Shown here one piece after another: positions 1 through 7,043 of a stretch of 7,251 nt of DNA. The first letter of the stretch is position 1. Every line of letters begins with the position of its first letter. The notes beneath the pieces were generated by a model that was not told the origin of the DNA, did not search any database, and saw only the letters and a program-made list of their open reading frames with translations. The translations under genes and the position numbers were made by a program. This stretch comes from Alphaproteobacteria bacterium (GTDB lineage Bacteria > Pseudomonadota > Alphaproteobacteria > Acetobacterales > Acetobacteraceae): the NCBI GenBank assembly GCA_013298245.1, contig JAAFHD010000178.1, forward strand, positions 1 to 7,251. The letters run 5' to 3'.

Positions 1-141
1 CAGCAGCACGCGCAGCTGTTCGGTGGGACGCATCAGGTCACGCAGCACGCCGGCCTGCAGCGCGGCGAAACCGAACAGCGCGATCGCCGCCAGCACCAGC
101 AGCCCGACCCATTCATCCGCGTGCCTGAGGCGCCAGTTCAT
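1..141 (-). CDS. MlaD/MCE-family protein, N-terminal part (cut by window edge)
   Basis: The ATG at 141 opens a frame that runs off the window after 47 residues. It begins MNWRLRHADEW, followed by one hydrophobic helix (about residues 11-30), then LQAGVLRD and the start of a beta-like stretch (LRVLL). A short basic cytoplasmic start, one membrane anchor and a following MCE domain is the usual plan of MlaD-like proteins, which form periplasmic rings that carry lipids between membranes. The MCE domain itself lies outside the window, so the call rests on the N-terminus and on the MlaE-type permease and ABC gene just upstream. Its ATG overlaps the stop of the ABC gene by 4 nt (ATGA), and an AGGAG lies 8 nt before the start. 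An unrelated single-pass protein is possible but unlikely in this context. Confidence 0.75.
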   Translation of the reverse strand, partial: MNWRLRHADEWVGLLVLAAIALFGFAALQAGVLRDLMRPTEQLRVLL

Positions 142-809
142 GCCGCGCGCTCCTGCATGGTGGGCACCAGGCCGCGTGCCGTCAGGCGCAACTGCTGCGC
201 CGCGATGCCGCCGCGTTCACGCCAGCGCGTGGGTGATGTGGTCAGCCACAGGCAGGCCGCGTTGCGTGTCATGGCGATGGCTTGCAGCAGCGGTGCCATC
301 AAGTCAGGCACCGCGCCGCCATCCAGGGGGTTCTCCAGCACCAGCAGCGCAGGTTCGCCCACGAAGGCGCGCACGAGAGCAGCGCGTTGCAACTCCGCGC
401 GGTCGAAATGCGCGGGCATGCCGAGCGGCAGGCCCGGCAGCAGGAAATGCCGCGCCCAGCGCGCCGCCGCTTCGGTGCGCGCGGCGCGCGACGCGCCGTC
501 CTGGAACAGGCCCGGCAGCAGGATGTTTTCGGCCAGTGGCAGATGCGCGAGCCACCCACCACGGAAGAAGCAGCGCCCGATGCGGCCGCGCAGCACATCG
601 CCAGCGTCATCGGCCAAGGCGGCCCAGTTCTGACCAAGAAAGCGTATGCTGCCCGATGCCGGCCGCGACAGGCCGGTCGCGAGATCGGCCAGGGCCGCGA
701 GCGAATGCTCATCATCGCCCAGCACCAAGGCGGTTTCGCCGGCATCCAGGTGCAGCTTTACAGCCATGCCGCCGGGCAGTTCCGCATCGATCTCCAGCGC
801 CGCCGTCAT
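138..809 (-). CDS. ABC transporter ATP-binding-like protein with all catalytic motifs degenerate (pseudo-ATPase)
   Basis: This 223-residue protein has the length and layout of a MlaF-type ABC ATPase and sits between a MlaE-type permease and a MlaD-type protein. The fold can be followed by landmarks: an early strand and loop, GSIRFLGQ (53-60), the segment IGRCFFRGGWLAHL leading to AENILLP, LQRAALVRAF (140-149) and ALLVLENP (154-161). Every catalytic motif is altered. The Walker A position reads GDDEHSL (31-37) with no Lys. The Q-loop Gln is Phe82. The LSGGQ position reads FDRAE (135-139). Walker B ends in Glu-Asn (159-160) in place of Asp-Glu. The H-loop His is replaced in LTTSP (189-193). ATP binding and hydrolysis therefore look lost, though the frame is open and intact. 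Start ATG at 809 overlaps the permease stop by 4 nt; no strong ribosome site precedes it, which fits translational coupling. It could be a structural partner of the permease, or part of a decaying transporter. Confidence 0.8.
   Translation of the reverse strand: MTAALEIDAELPGGMAVKLHLDAGETALVLGDDEHSLAALADLATGLSRPASGSIRFLGQNWAALADDAGDVLRGRIGRCFFRGGWLAHLPLAENILLPGLFQDGASRAARTEAAARWARHFLLPGLPLGMPAHFDRAELQRAALVRAFVGEPALLVLENPLDGGAVPDLMAPLLQAIAMTRNAACLWLTTSPTRWRERGGIAAQQLRLTARGLVPTMQERAA
150..154 (-). promoter_or_regulatory. Ribosome binding site of the MlaD-like gene
   Basis: The minus strand reads AGGAG here, 8 nt before the ATG at 141. It lies inside the last codons of the ABC ATPase-like gene. 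It is the best Shine-Dalgarno match in the transporter module and suggests that the MCE protein is made at higher or more independent levels than the genes before it. Confidence 0.6.
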
Positions 810-1588
810 GCCGCGAAACTCAAGCCGGCGGAGGCGAGCACCACCGCCAGCACGCCGCGCACGAAACCGCGTGGCAGCAGGCGTTCCGTGCCCTCCGCGC
901 CATTGCGGCCGAGGCCGGTCACGGCGGCGATGGCGCCGATCAAGCCGCCGATCACCAGCAACTTCGCGGGCACGATCGCGAAGTCGATCGCACGCATGGC
1001 GCGCAGCACGCCATCCAGCGCTTCGGGCAGCGATTGCGCCTGGCCCGACACCAGCCCCGCCGTGAGAAAGCCGGACAGCAACGCCAGCAGAATGAACACA
1101 ACACCGAGCGTGAAGGCCGCCAGCGCGAAGGCGACGATCATTGGCGTAACCAACAGCAGCATTGGGTCCACGCCCTGAGACGCCAATGCGCGCGCGGTGC
1201 CGTCGCGCTGCATCGCGCCCAATTCTATCATGCCAACCAACCCGCTGCGGCCGAGCAACAGCAAGCCCACCAGCACCGGCACCAATTCGCGCACCATCAC
1301 CGTGACGATCACCTGGCCCAGCAGGGCTTGCTGCCCGGCGAAGCCCAGCCACGTCACCGCCTGCACTACCATGCCAAGGCCCAGCACCAGGCCCAGCACG
1401 ATGGTGGCCGGCAGCGCACCCAGCACCGCTTGTGTCAGGCGTCGGCGGAACTCCGCACGCGCGGGCACTGACCAGCTGGCCGGCCGCACCGCGATACGCG
1501 CGGCATGCGCGGATACCGCCAGCGTTTCCAGCAGCGTCAGCATGCGCGCGCGGGTGAAGCGGCCAATGCGGGCGAGGGCGCGCCTCAC
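806..1588 (-). CDS. MlaE-family ABC transporter permease (MCE system)
   Basis: This 260-residue inner-membrane protein has about five hydrophobic segments (roughly 57-80, 86-115, 143-175, 205-225, 243-258). It shows the MlaE family core: RELVPVLVGLLLLGR (100-114), IELGAMQ (121-127) and GVDPMLLLVTPMIVA (139-153). MlaE dimers pass phospholipid between the membrane and the MlaD ring. The family stretch that normally reads close to EQIDALEVMG is here DGTARALASQG (129-139), so the region that touches the ATPase is diverged, in step with the degenerate ABC partner. I chose the GTG at 1588 because it overlaps the sensor gene's stop by 4 nt (GTGA) and has a weak AGG 6 nt upstream. The ATG at 1543 would give 245 residues but has no ribosome site. 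Its stop overlaps the ATG of the ABC gene. Confidence 0.88.
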   Translation of the reverse strand: MRRALARIGRFTRARMLTLLETLAVSAHAARIAVRPASWSVPARAEFRRRLTQAVLGALPATIVLGLVLGLGMVVQAVTWLGFAGQQALLGQVIVTVMVRELVPVLVGLLLLGRSGLVGMIELGAMQRDGTARALASQGVDPMLLLVTPMIVAFALAAFTLGVVFILLALLSGFLTAGLVSGQAQSLPEALDGVLRAMRAIDFAIVPAKLLVIGGLIGAIAAVTGLGRNGAEGTERLLPRGFVRGVLAVVLASAGLSFAA

Positions 1589-3891
1589 ATGGCACCTGCC
1601 AGCAGAAAGCTGCGCTGGATGCCGATGCGCGGCATGTGGAAGCTGCCGCGCGGGCGGAACAAGAAGTGGTCCTGGCAGGCGCTGTGGAAGGCCTCGCTGG
1701 CCTGGATGCCGCCTTCGGGCGCGGTCTGCGCGAGGTGTTCGGCCATGCGCACCGCATCGCCCCAGAGGTTGAACAGCGCAGCACCCGGTGCGGCCGCGAC
1801 CGGCGTGCCGATGGCGATGCCGAGGTCGATGCCGATCCGAAAGCGCGGTGCCTCGCCGGCTTCCTCCAGGATGCGCGTGGCGGCCGGCCGGAGAGCCAAC
1901 GCGAAGGCCGCGATGCGGGCGGCTGATTGCGCCGGCGTCTCGCGCGCATCGATGCCAGAGGCGGCGATGAACTGGTCCGCGAGCAATGCCAGGAAGGGCA
2001 GTTCCGCATCGCTTGCAGCGTCCTTCGCCGCCGCTGCGATGCGCTGCATCAGCGTGGCGCCATCGCCGCCAGGTGTGGCGCGGCCGAGTGCCAGCGGGTC
2101 CGAAAACCGTGCCAACAGCACGGCGCATTGCGGGAATACTTCTGCTTGCAAGCCCTGCGTCATGGCGGCGGGCAGGCTGCGTCGCGCGGGCGCGGCTTGC
2201 GTGGGCGTCGCACGCACAGCTGGCGTTGCGATCGCCGCCAGGCCCTGTGACATGCGCGGGATCAGCAGACGCGCCACCGCGGCCTGGAATTCGCGCGCCT
2301 GGTCGCCGCGTTCGGCCGCATCCTCCACCCAGCAGGCGCCGAGCAGGCGGCCCTTGTGCGTGATCGGTTCGATAGCGACCGCCTGGCTGCCGAGCGGGTG
2401 CAGCCAGACGCGATGCAATTCCGCAAGGCCCGGCACGCGCGCCGCGTCCTCGGCGGTGACGCGCGCGCCCTTGTCGAGCAGCGCGAAGAAGGCGGGCAAT
2501 TCGTCGCGCAGCAATTCCGCACCTGCGATGTGGCCGCCGCCGGCGGCCTCGAAGGCATCCTCACAGGTCAGGCGGCGCGCATTGTCCGACAGGCGCCAGA
2601 TGCTGGCGCGGCGCGCGCGGCAGATGAGTGCCAGGCGCTCACACAGCATGGGCGGCACCGGTTGCGCGGGGTCGAACACCGCGGGCGATGCGGCGAGTTC
2701 CGAAAACGCCTGGGATTGCGCGGCGATGGAGGCGCTTTCGCGCGCGATGCGGCGCGCCGCGCGATCGGCGCGTAGGCCCTGGCGCACCAGCACCACCGCC
2801 AATCCCAGCGCCAGCACAACGATGCCGAGTGAGAGCAGCAATGCGTTGCGATTGGTCGCGTTGACGAAGCCGGTGAAATCGCTTTCGGGCACCGTCACCA
2901 CCACCTGCCAGCCGAGCCCGTTTCCCGGCCCGATCGGGTCGGCCAGGATGATGTGGCGCTCACCATCGATGGTCTCGACCGTGTGCAGGCTGGGGGCAAG
3001 GCGCATGCGGTCATAGGCGCGCGCGAGCACCGGGTCGCCCAACGCATCCAGACGGCGCGCGGCGACGCCTGTGGGTGTTTCCTCGAGCATCGCCGCACTG
3101 TCCGGGTGCGCCACGACCCGGCCGGTGCGATCCACGATCACCGCGCGACCGCGTTGGCCGATGCGCAGGCCCCGCAGGAATTCCGACAATGCGGGCAGGG
3201 CGATGTCGAAGCCCACGACGCCGCGCACCGCGCCATCGGGCGCGCGTATTGCGTAGCTGGCGGTCACACCCGGCTGGCGCGTTTCGAAAAAGATGTAGAG
3301 GTCTGTCCAGACCAGGCTCTGCGCCGCCGCGGCACTGGTGAACCAGGGGCGTTGGCGTGGTTGGAAATTGTTCTCGGCGATGTCTTCCAGAAGTGTCGCG
3401 GTGCCGGCCATGTTGGTGGTGGTGCGCACCAGGCGGCGGGGCGTGCCATCGAAGATGCGCAAGGTGCGGAAGCTGTCGTCGCCGATGCGACGGAAGCCCA
3501 GGTAGTTGCCCTCCGCATCGGCCGCCAGGAACTGGAAACCCTGCGGCAATTCGCTGGTGATGCCGCGCAGATAGGCTTCCAGCTGCGGGCTGCGCGCCTC
3601 GCGAAGCGTGGTCGGTTCCACATAGGCTGCGGCGATGCGCGTGGCGCGCGCCATGGGATCCAGAAAGGCGCCGATCTCGGCCTCCACGCGCTGGTGCAGC
3701 GTCGCGAGCAGTTCATCGGTCAGCGCCAGCGCGCCGCGCCGGTTGGCGTCGAAGCTGTACAGCGCGATGGCGAGGATGGCGGCGATGATACCCGCAACAC
3801 CGGCCAACGGCAGGACCACGCGCAGCAATGCGCGGCGGCGACGGCGCCGATCCTCCAGCAGGATCAGCCCGGCATCCGCCGCCACGGTCAT
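1585..3891 (-). CDS. Membrane sensor: dCACHE, GAF and degenerate class III cyclase domains
   Basis: This 768-residue protein has a basic N-terminus, a transmembrane helix (about 21-45), a periplasmic double-CACHE domain (about 60-335), a second transmembrane helix (about 348-370), a linker helix, a GAF domain (about 410-545), a Pro/Ala linker (555-575) and a cyclase-like domain (about 580-768). The CACHE part has R181-x-W183-F184, Y199 and D229, close to the amino-acid-binding pattern of this family. The cyclase part is recognised by FRIGIDLG (684-691), FNLWGDAV (707-714), IQASEAF (729-735) and FRPRG (745-749). Where the first metal-binding Asp belongs there is Arg595; D639 and D712 remain; the catalytic Asn and Arg positions hold Arg715 and His719. 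Cyclase activity is therefore unlikely. The ATG at 3891 overlaps the preceding stop by 4 nt, and the stop overlaps the permease GTG by 4 nt. It may control the transporter by contact or ligand sensing; that role is inference. Confidence 0.85.
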   Translation of the reverse strand: MTVAADAGLILLEDRRRRRRALLRVVLPLAGVAGIIAAILAIALYSFDANRRGALALTDELLATLHQRVEAEIGAFLDPMARATRIAAAYVEPTTLREARSPQLEAYLRGITSELPQGFQFLAADAEGNYLGFRRIGDDSFRTLRIFDGTPRRLVRTTTNMAGTATLLEDIAENNFQPRQRPWFTSAAAAQSLVWTDLYIFFETRQPGVTASYAIRAPDGAVRGVVGFDIALPALSEFLRGLRIGQRGRAVIVDRTGRVVAHPDSAAMLEETPTGVAARRLDALGDPVLARAYDRMRLAPSLHTVETIDGERHIILADPIGPGNGLGWQVVVTVPESDFTGFVNATNRNALLLSLGIVVLALGLAVVLVRQGLRADRAARRIARESASIAAQSQAFSELAASPAVFDPAQPVPPMLCERLALICRARRASIWRLSDNARRLTCEDAFEAAGGGHIAGAELLRDELPAFFALLDKGARVTAEDAARVPGLAELHRVWLHPLGSQAVAIEPITHKGRLLGACWVEDAAERGDQAREFQAAVARLLIPRMSQGLAAIATPAVRATPTQAAPARRSLPAAMTQGLQAEVFPQCAVLLARFSDPLALGRATPGGDGATLMQRIAAAAKDAASDAELPFLALLADQFIAASGIDARETPAQSAARIAAFALALRPAATRILEEAGEAPRFRIGIDLGIAIGTPVAAAPGAALFNLWGDAVRMAEHLAQTAPEGGIQASEAFHSACQDHFLFRPRGSFHMPRIGIQRSFLLAGAM

Positions 3892-4178
3892 TCGCGCAGC
3901 GCCCGGGGGTTCGAGACGACGAGGCGCGCGCGTGCATCGGCGCGCAGCGCGGCCAAGGTGGCGGCATGATCATGTAAGCCAGCGCGGATCCCAGCTGCCA
4001 GGCCCGGCGCGCATTGTGACGTGGCTGCGTCCACGCCGAGCCGCGCGGCCACTTCCATCGCGCGCACCACCATGCGCGCATCCAACTGCAAGACGGGCGG
4101 TAGCGCGGGCAGGATGCGGTCCAGCATCACCGCGCGCGCGGTGGCCAGAAGGTTTGCGGCATCAGGCGGTTCCTGCAC
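3888..4178 (-). CDS. DUF6285-like small protein, partner of the acyl-CoA kinase
   Basis: This 96-residue soluble, Ala-rich helical protein matches the family of small proteins (DUF6285) that usually follow phosphotransferase and acyl-CoA dehydrogenase genes. It shows the typical start (MQEPPDAANLLATAR), a middle helix with LDARMVVRAMEV, and the typical end IRAGLHDH ... LRADARARLVVSNPRAL. The biochemical role is not known to me for the family. By size and position it resembles LvaB, a small protein acting with the kinase LvaA in levulinate catabolism, but I cannot show homology here. The start is GTG at 4178, supported by a GGAG 7 nt upstream; it overlaps the kinase stop by 17 nt. Its own stop overlaps the sensor start (ATGA), which joins the catabolic genes to the transporter genes. 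At 96 residues it is somewhat short for the family as I remember it. Confidence 0.75.
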   Translation of the reverse strand: MQEPPDAANLLATARAVMLDRILPALPPVLQLDARMVVRAMEVAARLGVDAATSQCAPGLAAGIRAGLHDHAATLAALRADARARLVVSNPRALRE

Positions 4179-5095
4179 GCAGGTGCTCCGTCATTTCCAG
4201 TGCGTCGAATTCCAACTCTGGCACCATATGGCCGGTCAATGCGAGTTCGAGTGATGTCTCGCGCCCAGACAAATGGCGCGCGGCCTGGCCCGCTGCGATG
4301 ATCGCCCAGCGGATGGTCGCGGCCAGCTGCCAATGGCGCACGATTGCGGCATCCGGGCGCCAGCCGGCTTCAGCGGCGTAGCCGTCCAGGAAGGCATCCA
4401 GCGGGCCGATGCCGCCGGCTTCCAGCGCGTCCTGTCCGAAGCACCAGCATCGGGCGGTGAACCAGCCGAGATCCTCATGCGGATCACCCCAGGCGGCGAA
4501 TTCCCAATCCAGCACGGCGGTGATGCGACCGTTGTCGATCATGATGTTGCCGCTGCGGAAATCGCGATGGCACAACACCGGCGCGCGTGCCGCGGGCGGG
4601 TGGGTTTCGAGGAAGCGCAGCGCCCATTCCAGCTGAGGGCGTGGGCGGCCCAGCGTGTCGATGCGCGCGCGCATCTCGGCGATGAAGGCGGGCATGGCGG
4701 TGCACGCGCGCGAGTTCGCGCCCATGCGCGGCGGTCAGCGCTGCATCGCCGCCCGCAGCGGCCGCGCGCTTGGCATTGGCGTGCCCGGATGCTTGGCCGG
4801 TGACGCGGCGCATCACGAAGAAGGGCGCGCCTGTGATGCTGGCGTCTTCGCAGAGGCGCAGCGGTTCGGGCACGGTAACTCCCGCCGCATGCGCGGCCTG
4901 CAGCAGCGCGAATTCCTGCGCGCGCGTCAGGCTTTCGGGCAGCGTCGCGGCATTGTCGGTGCGCAGCACCCAGGCTTCGGGCGTGCCATCGCGTTCGACA
5001 TCCAGCGCCCAGTTCTGCTGGATGGCGCCGCCCGAGAGCCGCGCCATGTGGGTGATGCGCGCGCCAAGCCAGGCCTCCAGCCGCGCCTTATCCAT
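4162..5095 (-). pseudogene. Phosphotransferase (APH-fold, ACAD10/11- or LvaA-like kinase), frameshifted
   Basis: Two frames together make one kinase. From ATG 5095 to about 4700 the frame encodes the N-lobe: LSGGAIQQNWAL (20-31), WVLRTDN (42-48), EFALLQAAHAAGVTVPEPL (61-79), GAPFFVMRRVTG (89-100), ending near GRELARVH (125-132). From about 4692 to 4162, shifted by one base, the C-lobe follows: PAFIAEMRARID, LEWALRFLE, the catalytic loop LCHRDFRSGN (Asp codon 4563-4561), VLDWEFAAWGDPHEDLGWF (metal Asp codon 4509-4507) and the ARCWCFG segment. Key residues are kept in both parts. Besides the frame change, about 16-20 residues usual between the LARVH helix and the next helix are missing, so a deletion of 3n+2 bases fits. 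The family phosphorylates hydroxyacyl-CoA in 4-hydroxy acid catabolism. The start overlaps the dehydrogenase stop by 8 nt, after a GGGGTG sequence. An assembly error is the main alternative. Confidence 0.8.
4186..4189 (-). promoter_or_regulatory. Ribosome binding site of the DUF6285-like gene
   Basis: The minus strand reads GGAG here, 7 nt before GTG at 4178. It decides in favour of this GTG start, which lies inside the end of the kinase gene, because no in-frame ATG early in the protein would keep the conserved first helix. Confidence 0.55.
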
Positions 5096-6293
5096 GCGCA
5101 CCCCAGGCGAAGAAGTCGCGCCCGCGTGCGCGCAATTCCTGCGCGAGCACCATGCGATGTACCTCCGATGCGCCATCCACAAGGCGCGCCTGGCGGGCGT
5201 AGCGGTACATCCATTCGACCGGCGTGTCCTTGGAATAGCCCCTCGCACCCAGCAATTGCAGCGCGGTGTCGGCGGCCTTGTGCAGCGCATCGGCGGCGAT
5301 GATTTTGGCCATGGAGATGTCCTGCTTGGCACGGTCGCCCTGGTCCAGCTTCCAGGCCGCGCGCATGGTCAGCATGCGCGAGATATCCAGTTGCAGTGCG
5401 GCCTCGCCCATCAGCGTCTGTACGCTTTCGCGGTCGGCGAGCTTCATGCCGAAGGAGGTGCGGCTTTCGATATGCGCCTGCGCGATTTCGAGCGCGCGGC
5501 GGCCCATGCCGGTCCAGCGCATGCAGTGCGTCAGCCGCGCGGGGCCGAGCCGAATCTGCGCCATCTTCAGCCCGTCGCCCACGCCCATCAGCAGGTTTTC
5601 GTCCGGGATTTCCAGGCCGTCGAATTCCAGCTCGCAATGCCCGCCATGCTCCTCCGGGCCCATGATCGGGATGCGGCGGATGATGCGCCAGCCGGGCTGG
5701 TCCTTGTGGAAGAGGAAGGCCGAGAGGCCCTTGCGCGCGTCATCGCTGGTGCGCGCGAGGATGATGAAATGCGTCGCTTCGCCGGCGCCGGTGATGAACC
5801 ATTTGCGGCCGTGAATCTGCCACCTGTCATTGCCCACGCGCTCGGCGCGCGTGTAGGTCTGGCCAGGGTCAGAACCCGCGCCACCAGGCTCGGTCATGGC
5901 GAAGGCGGATTGCACCTCGCCATCGATCAGCGGCTGCAGCCACCAGGTTTTCTGCGCGGGTGTGGCGACGCGTTCCATCACCATCATGTTCCCGTCATCG
6001 GGCGCTGCGCTGTTGAAGACGACGGGGCCGAAGATGGAGCGGTTCATCTCCTCATAGCAGGCGGCCATGCCGGTGAAGGGCAGTTCGCCACCGCCGCGTT
6101 CGCGCTTGGATTGCAAGGCCCAGAGGCCGGCGGCCTTGGCCTCTGCGCGCAGTTCGCGCAGCAGCGTGGGCGCGATATTTTCGTGTTCATCGTAGCTGGC
6201 GCGATCGGCCTCCAGCGGGATCAGCCGGTCCTGCACGAAATCGCGCACGCGCTTGCGGATGGCGTCCAGTTCGGGGGCGAGAGCAAAATCCAT
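5088..6293 (-). CDS. Acyl-CoA dehydrogenase, ACAD10/11-like
   Basis: This complete 401-residue flavoenzyme has the usual three parts: an N-terminal helical domain (1-125), a beta domain with the FAD/substrate signature FAMTEPGGAGSD (131-142) and WFITGAG (165-171), and a C-terminal helical domain with RTSFGMKL (278-285) and LLGARGY (347-353). At the position of the catalytic Glu of medium-chain enzymes it has Asp373 in VDGASEVH, as in the ACAD10/ACAD11-type subgroup. That subgroup works next to or fused with an APH-type kinase and removes phosphate from 4-phospho-acyl-CoA to give an enoyl-CoA. The gene sits directly before such a kinase, so the same role is likely, though ordinary alpha,beta-dehydrogenation of a branched or hydroxylated acyl-CoA cannot be excluded. 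The ATG at 6293 is 9 nt after the SDR stop, with AGGA overlapping that stop codon. Expected cofactor FAD, cytoplasmic, electrons to ETF. Confidence 0.92.
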   Translation of the reverse strand: MDFALAPELDAIRKRVRDFVQDRLIPLEADRASYDEHENIAPTLLRELRAEAKAAGLWALQSKRERGGGELPFTGMAACYEEMNRSIFGPVVFNSAAPDDGNMMVMERVATPAQKTWWLQPLIDGEVQSAFAMTEPGGAGSDPGQTYTRAERVGNDRWQIHGRKWFITGAGEATHFIILARTSDDARKGLSAFLFHKDQPGWRIIRRIPIMGPEEHGGHCELEFDGLEIPDENLLMGVGDGLKMAQIRLGPARLTHCMRWTGMGRRALEIAQAHIESRTSFGMKLADRESVQTLMGEAALQLDISRMLTMRAAWKLDQGDRAKQDISMAKIIAADALHKAADTALQLLGARGYSKDTPVEWMYRYARQARLVDGASEVHRMVLAQELRARGRDFFAWGAHG

Positions 6294-6300
6294 GCTGCGA

Positions 6301-6304
6301 TCCT
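6301..6304 (-). promoter_or_regulatory. Ribosome binding site of the acyl-CoA dehydrogenase gene
   Basis: The minus strand reads AGGA, 7 nt before the ATG at 6293. The motif overlaps the TAG stop of the dehydrogenase/reductase upstream, so a ribosome ending there could start again on the next gene. Confidence 0.5.
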
Positions 6305-7043
6305 AGAGCGAGGCGACGGAATGGCCGCCATCAATGGTGATGGTGCTGCCGGTCATGTGCGATGAGGCATCGGACGCCAGCAACAGCAGCGCGCCGGTCA
6401 GATCATCGGGGTTGCCTAGGCGGCGTTGCGGGATGCGCTTGACCATGGCCCGGCCGGGTTCACTGGCGAAAAATTCGCGGTTGATGTCGGAGGCGATGTA
6501 GCCCGGCGCGATGGCATTCACGCGGATCGAATGGCGCGCGAGTTCAACGGCCATCTGGCGCGTCAGATGCAAAAGCCCGGCCTTGGCGGCGGTGTAGCCG
6601 GCCACGCCCGGGATGATGCGCTCGCCCAGGATGGAGGCGATGTTGATAATGGAACCGCCCTGCTTGCGCGCGACCATCCCGCGCGCCGCTGCAGTTGCCA
6701 CCAAAAAGCAGCCGCGCAGATTCACATCGATCACCTGGTCGAAATCCGCGGGTTCCTGCGCCAGCAGCGGCTTGGTCACGGCGATGCCGGCATTGTTGAC
6801 CAGGATGTCGATGCGGCCTGCCGCGGCGATGGCGTCGCGCACCGATGCGGGGTCGGTCACGTCCAGCGCGACGGTGGTGGCGCCGATGGTGGCGGCGGTT
6901 TCGGCCATCGCATCAAGGCGGCGCGCGGCCATCACGACGCGAGCACCGGCGCCTGCAAGCACGCGGCAAAATTGCGCGCCGAGCAGGCCCGATGCGCCGG
7001 TGACAAAGGCCGTGCGGCCCGAGAGATCAAGGATATTCTGCAT
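6303..7043 (-). CDS. SDR-family NAD(P)-dependent oxidoreductase
   Basis: This 246-residue classical short-chain dehydrogenase has a nucleotide loop TGASGLLG (15-22), two Arg after the second strand (AARRLD, 39-44) that favour NADP(H), DVTD (61-64), NNAG (83-86), and the full catalytic tetrad N108, S137, Y150, K154 (YTAAK). PGYI follows at 180-183, and the C-terminus ends TGSTITIDGG plus a short tail, as in FabG-like enzymes. It catalyses a hydroxyl/ketone interconversion in the cytoplasm. Placed before the acyl-CoA dehydrogenase and kinase, it corresponds by position to LvaD, which reduces a 4-oxoacyl-CoA to the 4-hydroxyacyl-CoA. A 3-hydroxyacyl-CoA dehydrogenase role is the alternative. I chose ATG 7043 because the fold starts right after it; an upstream extension to 7187 would overlap the previous gene and adds residues that do not look like protein. 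No clear ribosome site precedes it. Confidence 0.9.
   Translation of the reverse strand: MQNILDLSGRTAFVTGASGLLGAQFCRVLAGAGARVVMAARRLDAMAETAATIGATTVALDVTDPASVRDAIAAAGRIDILVNNAGIAVTKPLLAQEPADFDQVIDVNLRGCFLVATAAARGMVARKQGGSIINIASILGERIIPGVAGYTAAKAGLLHLTRQMAVELARHSIRVNAIAPGYIASDINREFFASEPGRAMVKRIPQRRLGNPDDLTGALLLLASDASSHMTGSTITIDGGHSVASL

What the first reader, a model, noticed from the sequence alone, without database searches (positions are those of the whole stretch)
1..3891. Receptor and MCE lipid-transport genes joined in one translationally coupled unit
Sensor, permease, ABC protein and MCE protein follow each other with 4-nt overlaps (3891/3888, 1588/1585, 809/806, 141/138). MCE operons usually hold transporter parts only. 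A dCACHE-GAF-pseudo-cyclase receptor as first gene, together with a pseudo-ATPase, suggests a lipid-transport system gated by an outside signal rather than by normal ATP hydrolysis. I do not know a described system of this make-up.
Basis: partly seen in the sequence, partly recalled or inferred. Interest (0 to 1): 0.7.

Follow-up and report, generated by a model that had tools for sequence, protein, structure and literature searches.

The report
ATPase-dead lipid bridge with receptor
A five-gene unit found in many relatives of acetic-acid bacteria joins a receptor predicted to sense signals outside the inner membrane to a predicted lipid-transport complex whose energy subunit has lost its ATP-binding motif, so lipid movement there is likely switched by a signal instead of being driven by ATP.

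Summary
Receptor, MlaE-type permease, ABC-like protein and the start of an MCE gene lie on the minus strand with 4-nt overlaps. The first three recur in that order in 63 of 68 distinct receptor loci; four of the other five are cut by contig ends, one is a true exception. MCE follows in 60 of 60 and a likely TPR lipoprotein in 55 of 55 loci with room. In 149 other family genomes receptor and ABC-like protein occur together in 44, receptor alone in 3, ABC-like alone in 0. The ABC-like protein keeps the fold, but none of 63 has the Walker A lysine, while 30 of 31 canonical MlaE loci have a Walker A neighbour. The permease lacks the EExDA-type motif (0 of 62; canonical 31 of 31). dN/dS is 0.04-0.34. 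Best reading: a separate MCE system kept as a non-ATPase and likely controlled by its receptor. Contact, gating and cargo are inferred. Nine text searches aimed at it found no description.

The parts
1585..3891 (-). receptor: TM1, dCache_1 sensor, TM2, GAF, cyclase-like domain (768 aa)
   Evidence: hydropathy peaks at residues ~20-45 and ~345-370
2857..3759 (-). dCache_1 sensor domain between the two predicted TM helices (residues ~45-345)
   Evidence: Pfam dCache_1; best solved relative PctA, E 5.4e-12
2266..2643 (-). GAF domain (residues 417-542)
   Evidence: 20.9 bits, just under the cut-off; GAF is listed for most relatives
1588..2139 (-). cyclase-like output domain (about residues 585-768), likely catalytically inactive
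   Evidence: Pfam Guanylate_cyc above cut-off; solved class III cyclases; residue counts
806..1588 (-). MlaE-type permease of a divergent subtype
   Evidence: PF02405 100 bits; PDB MlaE/YrbE matches of its family profile
1163..1225 (-). permease coupling loop (residues 122-142) lacking the EExDA-type motif
138..809 (-). ABC nucleotide-binding-domain-like protein without Walker A (pseudo-ATPase)
   Evidence: AF2 model pLDDT 93.4; NBD fold
696..719 (-). place of Walker A in the ABC-like protein (GDDEHSLA instead of GxxGxGKS)
1..141 (-). start of the MCE (MlaD-like) gene, cut by the contig end
1585..1588 (-). 4-nt stop/start overlap receptor/permease
   Evidence: available in 55 of 64 loci
806..809 (-). 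4-nt overlap permease/ABC-like protein
   Evidence: available in only 20 of 63 loci
138..141 (-). 4-nt overlap ABC-like protein/MCE
3888..4178 (-). DUF6285-like ORF whose stop overlaps the receptor start (local neighbour, not part of the conserved unit)
   Evidence: (23.9 bits, cut-off 28.1)

Best explanation
The window holds the front of a conserved gene unit (receptor, MlaE-type permease, ABC-like protein without Walker A, MCE protein and, in relatives, a likely TPR lipoprotein) that likely builds a lipid conduit between the two membranes, switched by an outside signal rather than driven by ATP hydrolysis. Shown by sequence: the order, its recurrence, the joint loss of Walker A and of the permease coupling motif, and selection to keep the proteins. 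Inferred: the MCE protein with its long, probably helical tail would span the periplasm to the lipoprotein at the outer membrane; the pseudo-ATPase would sit under the permease as a structural clamp; the receptor would bind a small, perhaps carboxylate-bearing ligand in the periplasm and pass the change through GAF and a catalytically silent cyclase-like dimer to that clamp, opening or closing the permease so that lipid moves down its gradient. Contact between receptor and pseudo-ATPase, direction of flow, ligand and cargo are all untested.
For: Order receptor-permease-ABC on one strand in 63 of 68 distinct receptor loci. MCE follows in 60 of 60 and the fifth gene in 55 of 55 loci with room (4 and 5 of these loci seeded the profiles). 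Co-occurrence in 149 other family genomes: both 44, receptor only 3 (two contig ends, one locus in pieces), ABC-like only 0, neither 102. Walker A Lys 0 of 63 (one gap); Walker B Asp 2 of 63 and H-loop His 2 of 63, against 29 of 30 each in canonical neighbours; signature glycines mostly gone. The 30 canonical proteins were picked by their Walker A, so only the other motifs are a free control; independently, 30 of 31 canonical MlaE loci have such a neighbour. Coupling motif 0 of 62 against 31 of 31; a paper names EExDA as a strong candidate for the ATPase-binding site of mycobacterial Mce permeases (PMC9947336, passages). dN/dS of the ABC-like gene 0.04-0.34 in the 11 of 13 pairs that could be computed. 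Tree distances: receptor-MCE r = 0.95 over 57 loci, partial r 0.90 with canonical MlaE as control over 23 genomes. NBD fold kept. Cyclase Asn kept in 1 of 65 and Arg in 5 of 65 rows. dCache pocket: Arg181 52 of 52, Tyr199 51 of 52, Asp229 48 of 52.
Against: No biochemical or genetic data. By sequence the ABC-like protein is nearer to YbbA, LolD and FtsE than to MlaF (44, 42 and 39 against 19 bits for the window's protein; same trend), so it need not descend from the MlaF that binds MlaE. One Desulfobacterales genome keeps the receptor with no permease beside it (L119) and no clear ABC-like relative (best 65 bits), so the receptor can live alone. The unit is patchy: 1 of 9 genomes of the window's genus, about a third of the family. 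Reading frames are broken in L110, L106 and L093. A canonical MlaF from elsewhere could still power the permease. The first cyclase metal Asp is ambiguous (Asp or Glu nearby in 53 of 65 rows). 17 of 63 ABC-like proteins keep Gln at the Q-loop position and 13 of 63 Glu at the catalytic Glu position. Several dS values exceed 1, so those ratios are rough. That MCE cargo is lipid is taken from the family.
Confidence: 0.42

Rival explanations
1. The permease borrows an active MlaF from a canonical Mla locus (as mycobacterial Mce1 and Mce4 share MceG), and the pseudo-ATPase is a regulatory or asymmetric partner.
For: 49 of 50 receptor genomes also hold a canonical-scoring MlaE (187 bits or more; the exception, G126, has it in pieces), and 30 of 31 canonical loci examined have a Walker A protein beside it. 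A shared ATPase is published for Mce1/Mce4 (PMC9947336, passages).
Against: The coupling motif of the receptor-linked permease is gone in 62 of 62, and the pseudo-ATPase has mostly lost its signature glycines too, so neither composite ATP site of a mixed dimer looks competent.
Confidence: 0.22
2. The flow of information is reversed: the MCE complex senses lipid state between the membranes and signals to the receptor protein, which relays it in the cytoplasm.
For: No ATPase motifs and little cyclase catalysis left in the unit, so it could be a pure sensor; GAF and cyclase-like domains are typical signalling modules (general knowledge).
Against: The receptor has its own dCache pocket with conserved ligand residues, which suggests input there. 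Whether a regulator is conserved near the unit was not tested.
Confidence: 0.14
3. Receptor and MCE genes are only co-expressed: the receptor is a weak nucleotide cyclase or signalling protein with its own role, and the gene overlap sets amounts only.
For: L119 has the receptor without MCE genes in its neighbourhood; some rows, the window among them, keep the second metal Asp (10 of 65), and Asp or Glu stands near the first in 53 of 65.
Against: 44 of 44 genomes with the ABC-like protein have the receptor; overlap available in 55 of 64; tree agreement beyond the canonical MlaE signal; Asn and Arg almost always lost.
Confidence: 0.15
4. The ABC-like protein is a decaying gene product and the unit is a relic.
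For: In G126 receptor, permease and ABC are in pieces, in G136 receptor and permease are split, and the permease of G142 has a stop; distribution is patchy.
Against: dN/dS well below 1, long open frames in most loci from Acetobacteraceae to Desulfobacterota, a conserved new loop motif (62 of 62 with G[IVLM][DNE]), and presence in genomes of 1.9-2.2 Mb.
Confidence: 0.03

Closest known systems
Mla (MlaFEDB/MlaC/MlaA), E. coli and others
   Same: MlaE permease family, NBD fold, single-MCE-domain protein
   Different: Here no Walker A and no EExDA-type motif; a receptor and a likely TPR lipoprotein in the unit. Canonical MlaE genes are present separately in 49 of 50 such genomes. The ABC-like protein is nearer to LolD/YbbA than to MlaF by sequence.
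Mpc (MpcEFDA), Brucella (PMC12436622, passages seen)
   Same: Alphaproteobacterial permease, NBD, MCE protein with needle, and a lipoprotein
   Different: There the ABC transporter is described as well conserved, MpcE carries a STAS domain, MpcA is PqiC-like and no receptor is named in the passages seen; here the lipoprotein has TPR matches.
PqiABC and LetAB, E. coli
   Same: MCE bridges whose inner-membrane subunit is described as lacking an ATPase domain (PMC12436622, passages seen)
   Different: PqiA/LetA are not MlaE (general knowledge) and no NBD-like protein is present; here an NBD is kept but has lost its motifs.
Mycobacterial Mce1/Mce4 with shared ATPase MceG (PMC9947336, passages seen)
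   Same: MlaE/YrbE permeases and MCE proteins without a working ATPase in the operon
   Different: MceG keeps the ATPase motifs, acts for two systems, and the permeases keep EExDA.
dCache_1 amino-acid and amine chemoreceptors (PctA, PctD; PMC10104139, passages seen)
   Same: Sensor fold and pocket residues matching PctA R126, W128, Y144 and D173 (numbering fitted by motif spacing)
   Different: Phe replaces the Asp two residues after Y144 (49 of 52); output is GAF plus cyclase-like domain, not a chemotaxis domain.

Membership tests
MCE-type ABC lipid transporter (Mla-like) | MlaE-family permease | tested here: met
   PF02405 100 bits, cut-off 22.5; but NCBIfam TIGR00056 only 53.7 against cut-off 212.2
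MCE-type ABC lipid transporter (Mla-like) | MCE (MlaD) protein in the operon | tested here: met
   47-aa start in window matches relatives; three of three relatives scanned pass PF02470
MCE-type ABC lipid transporter (Mla-like) | ATPase with Walker A | tested here: not met
   Lys 0 of 63, one gap; Walker A pattern in 0 of 69 ORFs, duplicates included
MCE-type ABC lipid transporter (Mla-like) | EExDA-type coupling motif in the permease | tested here: not met
   0 of 62 against 31 of 31 canonical (loose pattern set after seeing the canonical rows, strict form 30 of 31)
MCE-type ABC lipid transporter (Mla-like) | lipid transport activity | not testable with these tools
   needs biochemistry
ABC NBD superfamily (fold) | NBD fold | tested here: met
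class III nucleotide cyclase (active) | transition-state Asn and Arg | tested here: not met
   Asn 1 of 65, Arg 5 of 65; window has Arg and His there; which residues are catalytic is recalled
class III nucleotide cyclase (active) | two metal-binding Asp | tested here: inconclusive
   second Asp 10 of 65, kept in the window; first Asp position ambiguous in alignment
dCache_1 amino-acid sensor (dCache_1AA) | AA motif including the Asp two after Y144 | tested here: not met
   Phe in 49 of 52; that this Asp belongs to the motif is recalled, R126, W128, Y129, Y144 and D173 are in PMC10104139 passages
Mpc (Brucella) | PqiC-like lipoprotein and STAS-MlaE | tested here: not met
   fifth gene: TPR matches in 2 of 3 scanned, none in the third, no PqiC-type match; only MlaE found in the window's permease and the two relatives scanned

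The most novel reading that the evidence does not exclude
A third way to run an MCE lipid bridge: neither ATP-driven like Mla nor PqiA/LetA-type, but ligand-gated. A periplasmic receptor with a silenced cyclase dimer holds a silenced ABC ATPase dimer, two dead enzymes kept as a mechanical relay, and opens an inner-to-outer-membrane lipid channel on demand.
Probability: 0.33. Interest if true: 0.88.

Novelty: new variant of a known kind. Interest (0 to 1): 0.74.

Why it matters
What drives lipids through MCE bridges, and in which direction, is debated (general knowledge). A natural MCE system that has kept the NBD and permease folds while shedding ATP motifs, with a dedicated receptor instead, separates the conduit from the motor and offers a system in which ligand-controlled lipid movement could be measured. 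It also suggests a use for enzyme-dead cyclase and ABC domains as a signal relay.

Tried and rejected
Receptor-permease fusion: P0127 (1044 aa, dCache-GAF-MlaE) looked like a natural fusion, but its middle reads as a frame-shifted cyclase domain (by eye), so it is not used as evidence. Defence system: no PADLOC match for receptor, permease or ABC-like protein. Phage or plasmid cargo: no phage match for the ABC-like protein; partial matches, sensor part only, in three Paracoccus plasmid records for the receptor. Misbinned contig: rejected, the acyl-CoA dehydrogenase upstream is 83-96% identical in all eight other genomes of the genus searched; an assembly chimera at the DUF6285/receptor junction is not excluded, though GC is 69-70% on both sides of it. 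Loss of metal Asp 1 in the cyclase domain: dropped as a claim because HMMER and MAFFT align it differently. A conserved 4-nt overlap permease/ABC: not supported (20 of 63). The canonical control was chosen by its Walker A, so its 30 of 30 lysines prove nothing; I use 30 of 31 loci instead. The pocket position for PctA Y121 was mis-numbered and is not used. Weak receptor matches (13 of 61 genomes, best E 6.9e-18, nearly all in the sensor domain) were left out of the 47. A structure of the receptor and a Foldseek search could not be run.

Paper searches: searches were aimed at this unit or its parts, at the sensor motif; listings seen, no description of the unit found. The library lacks most subscription papers. 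Seen: PMC5561183 passages plus section 7; passages of PMC12436622, PMC7367683, PMC10104139, PMC10094684 and PMC9947336.
Full report
What is there. The window is contig C88 (7251 bases) of a draft genome of 3.7 Mb in 523 contigs. The family is Acetobacteraceae: contigs of same-family genomes equal, by length, named Acetobacteraceae and Elioraea records. The genes run on the minus strand: SDR (7040..6303), acyl-CoA dehydrogenase (6293..5088), a kinase of the APH family in two frames, a DUF6285-like ORF (4178..3888), receptor (3891..1585), MlaE-type permease (1588..806), ABC-like protein (809..138) and the first 47 codons of an MCE gene.

How widespread. In 150 genomes of the family (the window's own included) the receptor is found, beyond weak domain matches, in 47 of the 149 others. 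The ABC-like protein gives a clear match (E below 1e-20; next best 2.9e-13) in 44, all among those 47. The three others are two receptors at contig ends (G108, G091) and one locus in which receptor, permease and ABC are in pieces (G126). I fetched all 47 regions and 26 named loci; six of the latter repeat contigs already held. Of 68 distinct loci including the window, 63 have receptor, permease and ABC-like gene in that order on one strand (L110, L106 and L093 among them have broken frames). Of the other five, L069, L095, L118 and L130 end with the contig, and L119 is a real exception: a Desulfobacterales chromosome with the receptor but neither permease nor ABC-like gene beside it, and no clear ABC-like relative in the genome (best 65 bits against 259-288 in three genomes with the unit). 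The named loci include Rubritepida, Neoroseomonas, Plastoroseomonas, Elioraea, Acetobacter, Azospirillum, one MAG labelled Gammaproteobacteria and four labelled Deltaproteobacteria or Desulfobacterales/-aceae, three of which have the unit. Beyond the family it is rare: in 385 genomes of the class, full-length receptors appeared outside the family in two (G185, G500), both with all five genes and no Walker A; in 398 genomes of the phylum, which overlap that set, no further case outside the class appeared.

The later genes. Downstream of the ABC-like gene an MCE protein follows in 60 of 60 loci with room, and after it a further protein in 55 of 55 with room (the seeds of the profiles are among them, and the decayed L110 counts with a weak match). 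The three MCE relatives scanned carry one MlaD domain (PF02470) followed by a long tail, probably helical; of three examples of the fifth protein two match TPR families and one matches nothing. Its sequences begin like lipoproteins (hydrophobic start and a cysteine; read by eye in five sequences). In the window the rest of the MCE gene and the fifth gene lie beyond the contig end.

The receptor. Two hydrophobic stretches flank a dCache_1 domain; GAF and a class III cyclase-like domain follow. In 65 aligned rows the catalytic Asn is kept in 1 and the Arg in 5, the second metal Asp in 10 (the window keeps it); the first metal Asp is ambiguous (the names of the catalytic residues are recalled). 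I therefore call it likely inactive. The sensor pocket resembles the amino-acid sensor PctA: positions matching R126 (52 of 52), W128 (51), Y144 (51) and D173 (48 of 52) are kept, but Phe stands where PctA has Asp two residues after Y144 (49 of 52). R126 binds the ligand carboxylate in PctA (PMC10104139, passage). A carboxylate-bearing ligand that is not a plain amino acid is my guess.

Co-evolution. Patristic distances of receptor, permease, ABC-like and MCE trees correlate at 0.85-0.95 over 57 loci. Canonical MlaE of 23 of these genomes correlates with them at 0.63-0.74; with it as control the partial correlations stay at 0.65-0.90, highest for receptor-MCE. Pairs of distances are not independent, so these numbers are descriptive.

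Patchiness. In the window's own genus 1 of 9 genomes has the receptor. The other eight keep SDR, acyl-CoA dehydrogenase and the kinase, and six of eight have a detectable DUF6285-like ORF, with no receptor in the stretch fetched. So the unit was gained here, or lost in its kin; the DUF6285 overlap is a local junction.

Mechanism. The best-supported reading is an MCE lipid conduit that works without local ATP hydrolysis and is controlled by its own receptor. The conserved order, the co-occurrence and the joint loss of ATPase and coupling motifs support it; direct contact, gating, cargo and direction are inference. The main rival is a borrowed canonical MlaF. It fails two defining tests of the ATP-driven Mla/MCE family, though it may work like the bridge part of it.

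Novelty. A published neighbourhood survey of MCE genes in Proteobacteria names permease, ATP-binding, DUF330, Tol, STAS, MlaA, NDUFA12 and PqiA neighbours, and its main text has no hit for 'adenylate cyclase' or 'cache' (PMC5561183; passages and section 7). Nine text searches aimed at the unit or its parts (listings seen) found no description of it in the held library.

Noticed in passing
window 4162-5100, minus strand: The APH-family kinase gene between acyl-CoA dehydrogenase and the DUF6285-like ORF lies in two different frames; in close relatives (L220, L221) both halves lie in one frame. Real break or assembly error not decided.
   Followed up: partly
L119 6947-9418: Orphan receptor in a Desulfobacterales chromosome with a stronger cyclase match (95 bits) than the window's (36 bits), next to an AP_endonuc_2-type gene and solute-binding protein genes; its Asn and Arg positions are also changed.
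   Followed up: partly
L110 (G126), L106 (G136), L093 (G142): Receptor, permease and ABC-like genes are in pieces together in L110; receptor and permease are split in L106; the permease of L093 has a stop.
   Followed up: partly
L220-L227, downstream of the kinase/DUF6285 genes: The SDR-acyl-CoA dehydrogenase-kinase run is conserved in eight same-genus genomes, but what follows it varies among them; in the window the MCE unit sits there.
   Followed up: partly
whole genomes: About two thirds of the 50 receptor genomes hold a second MlaE class of about 187-231 bits in long open frames (often about 400 aa or more), perhaps STAS-MlaE as in Brucella Mpc; not tested.
   Followed up: no
L104 8443-9434: About 1 kb separates receptor and permease in G013, unlike the usual 4-nt overlap.
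   Followed up: no
window 138-809: The ABC-like protein scores higher against YbbA, LolD and FtsE models than against MlaF; its origin may differ from that of MlaF.
   Followed up: partly
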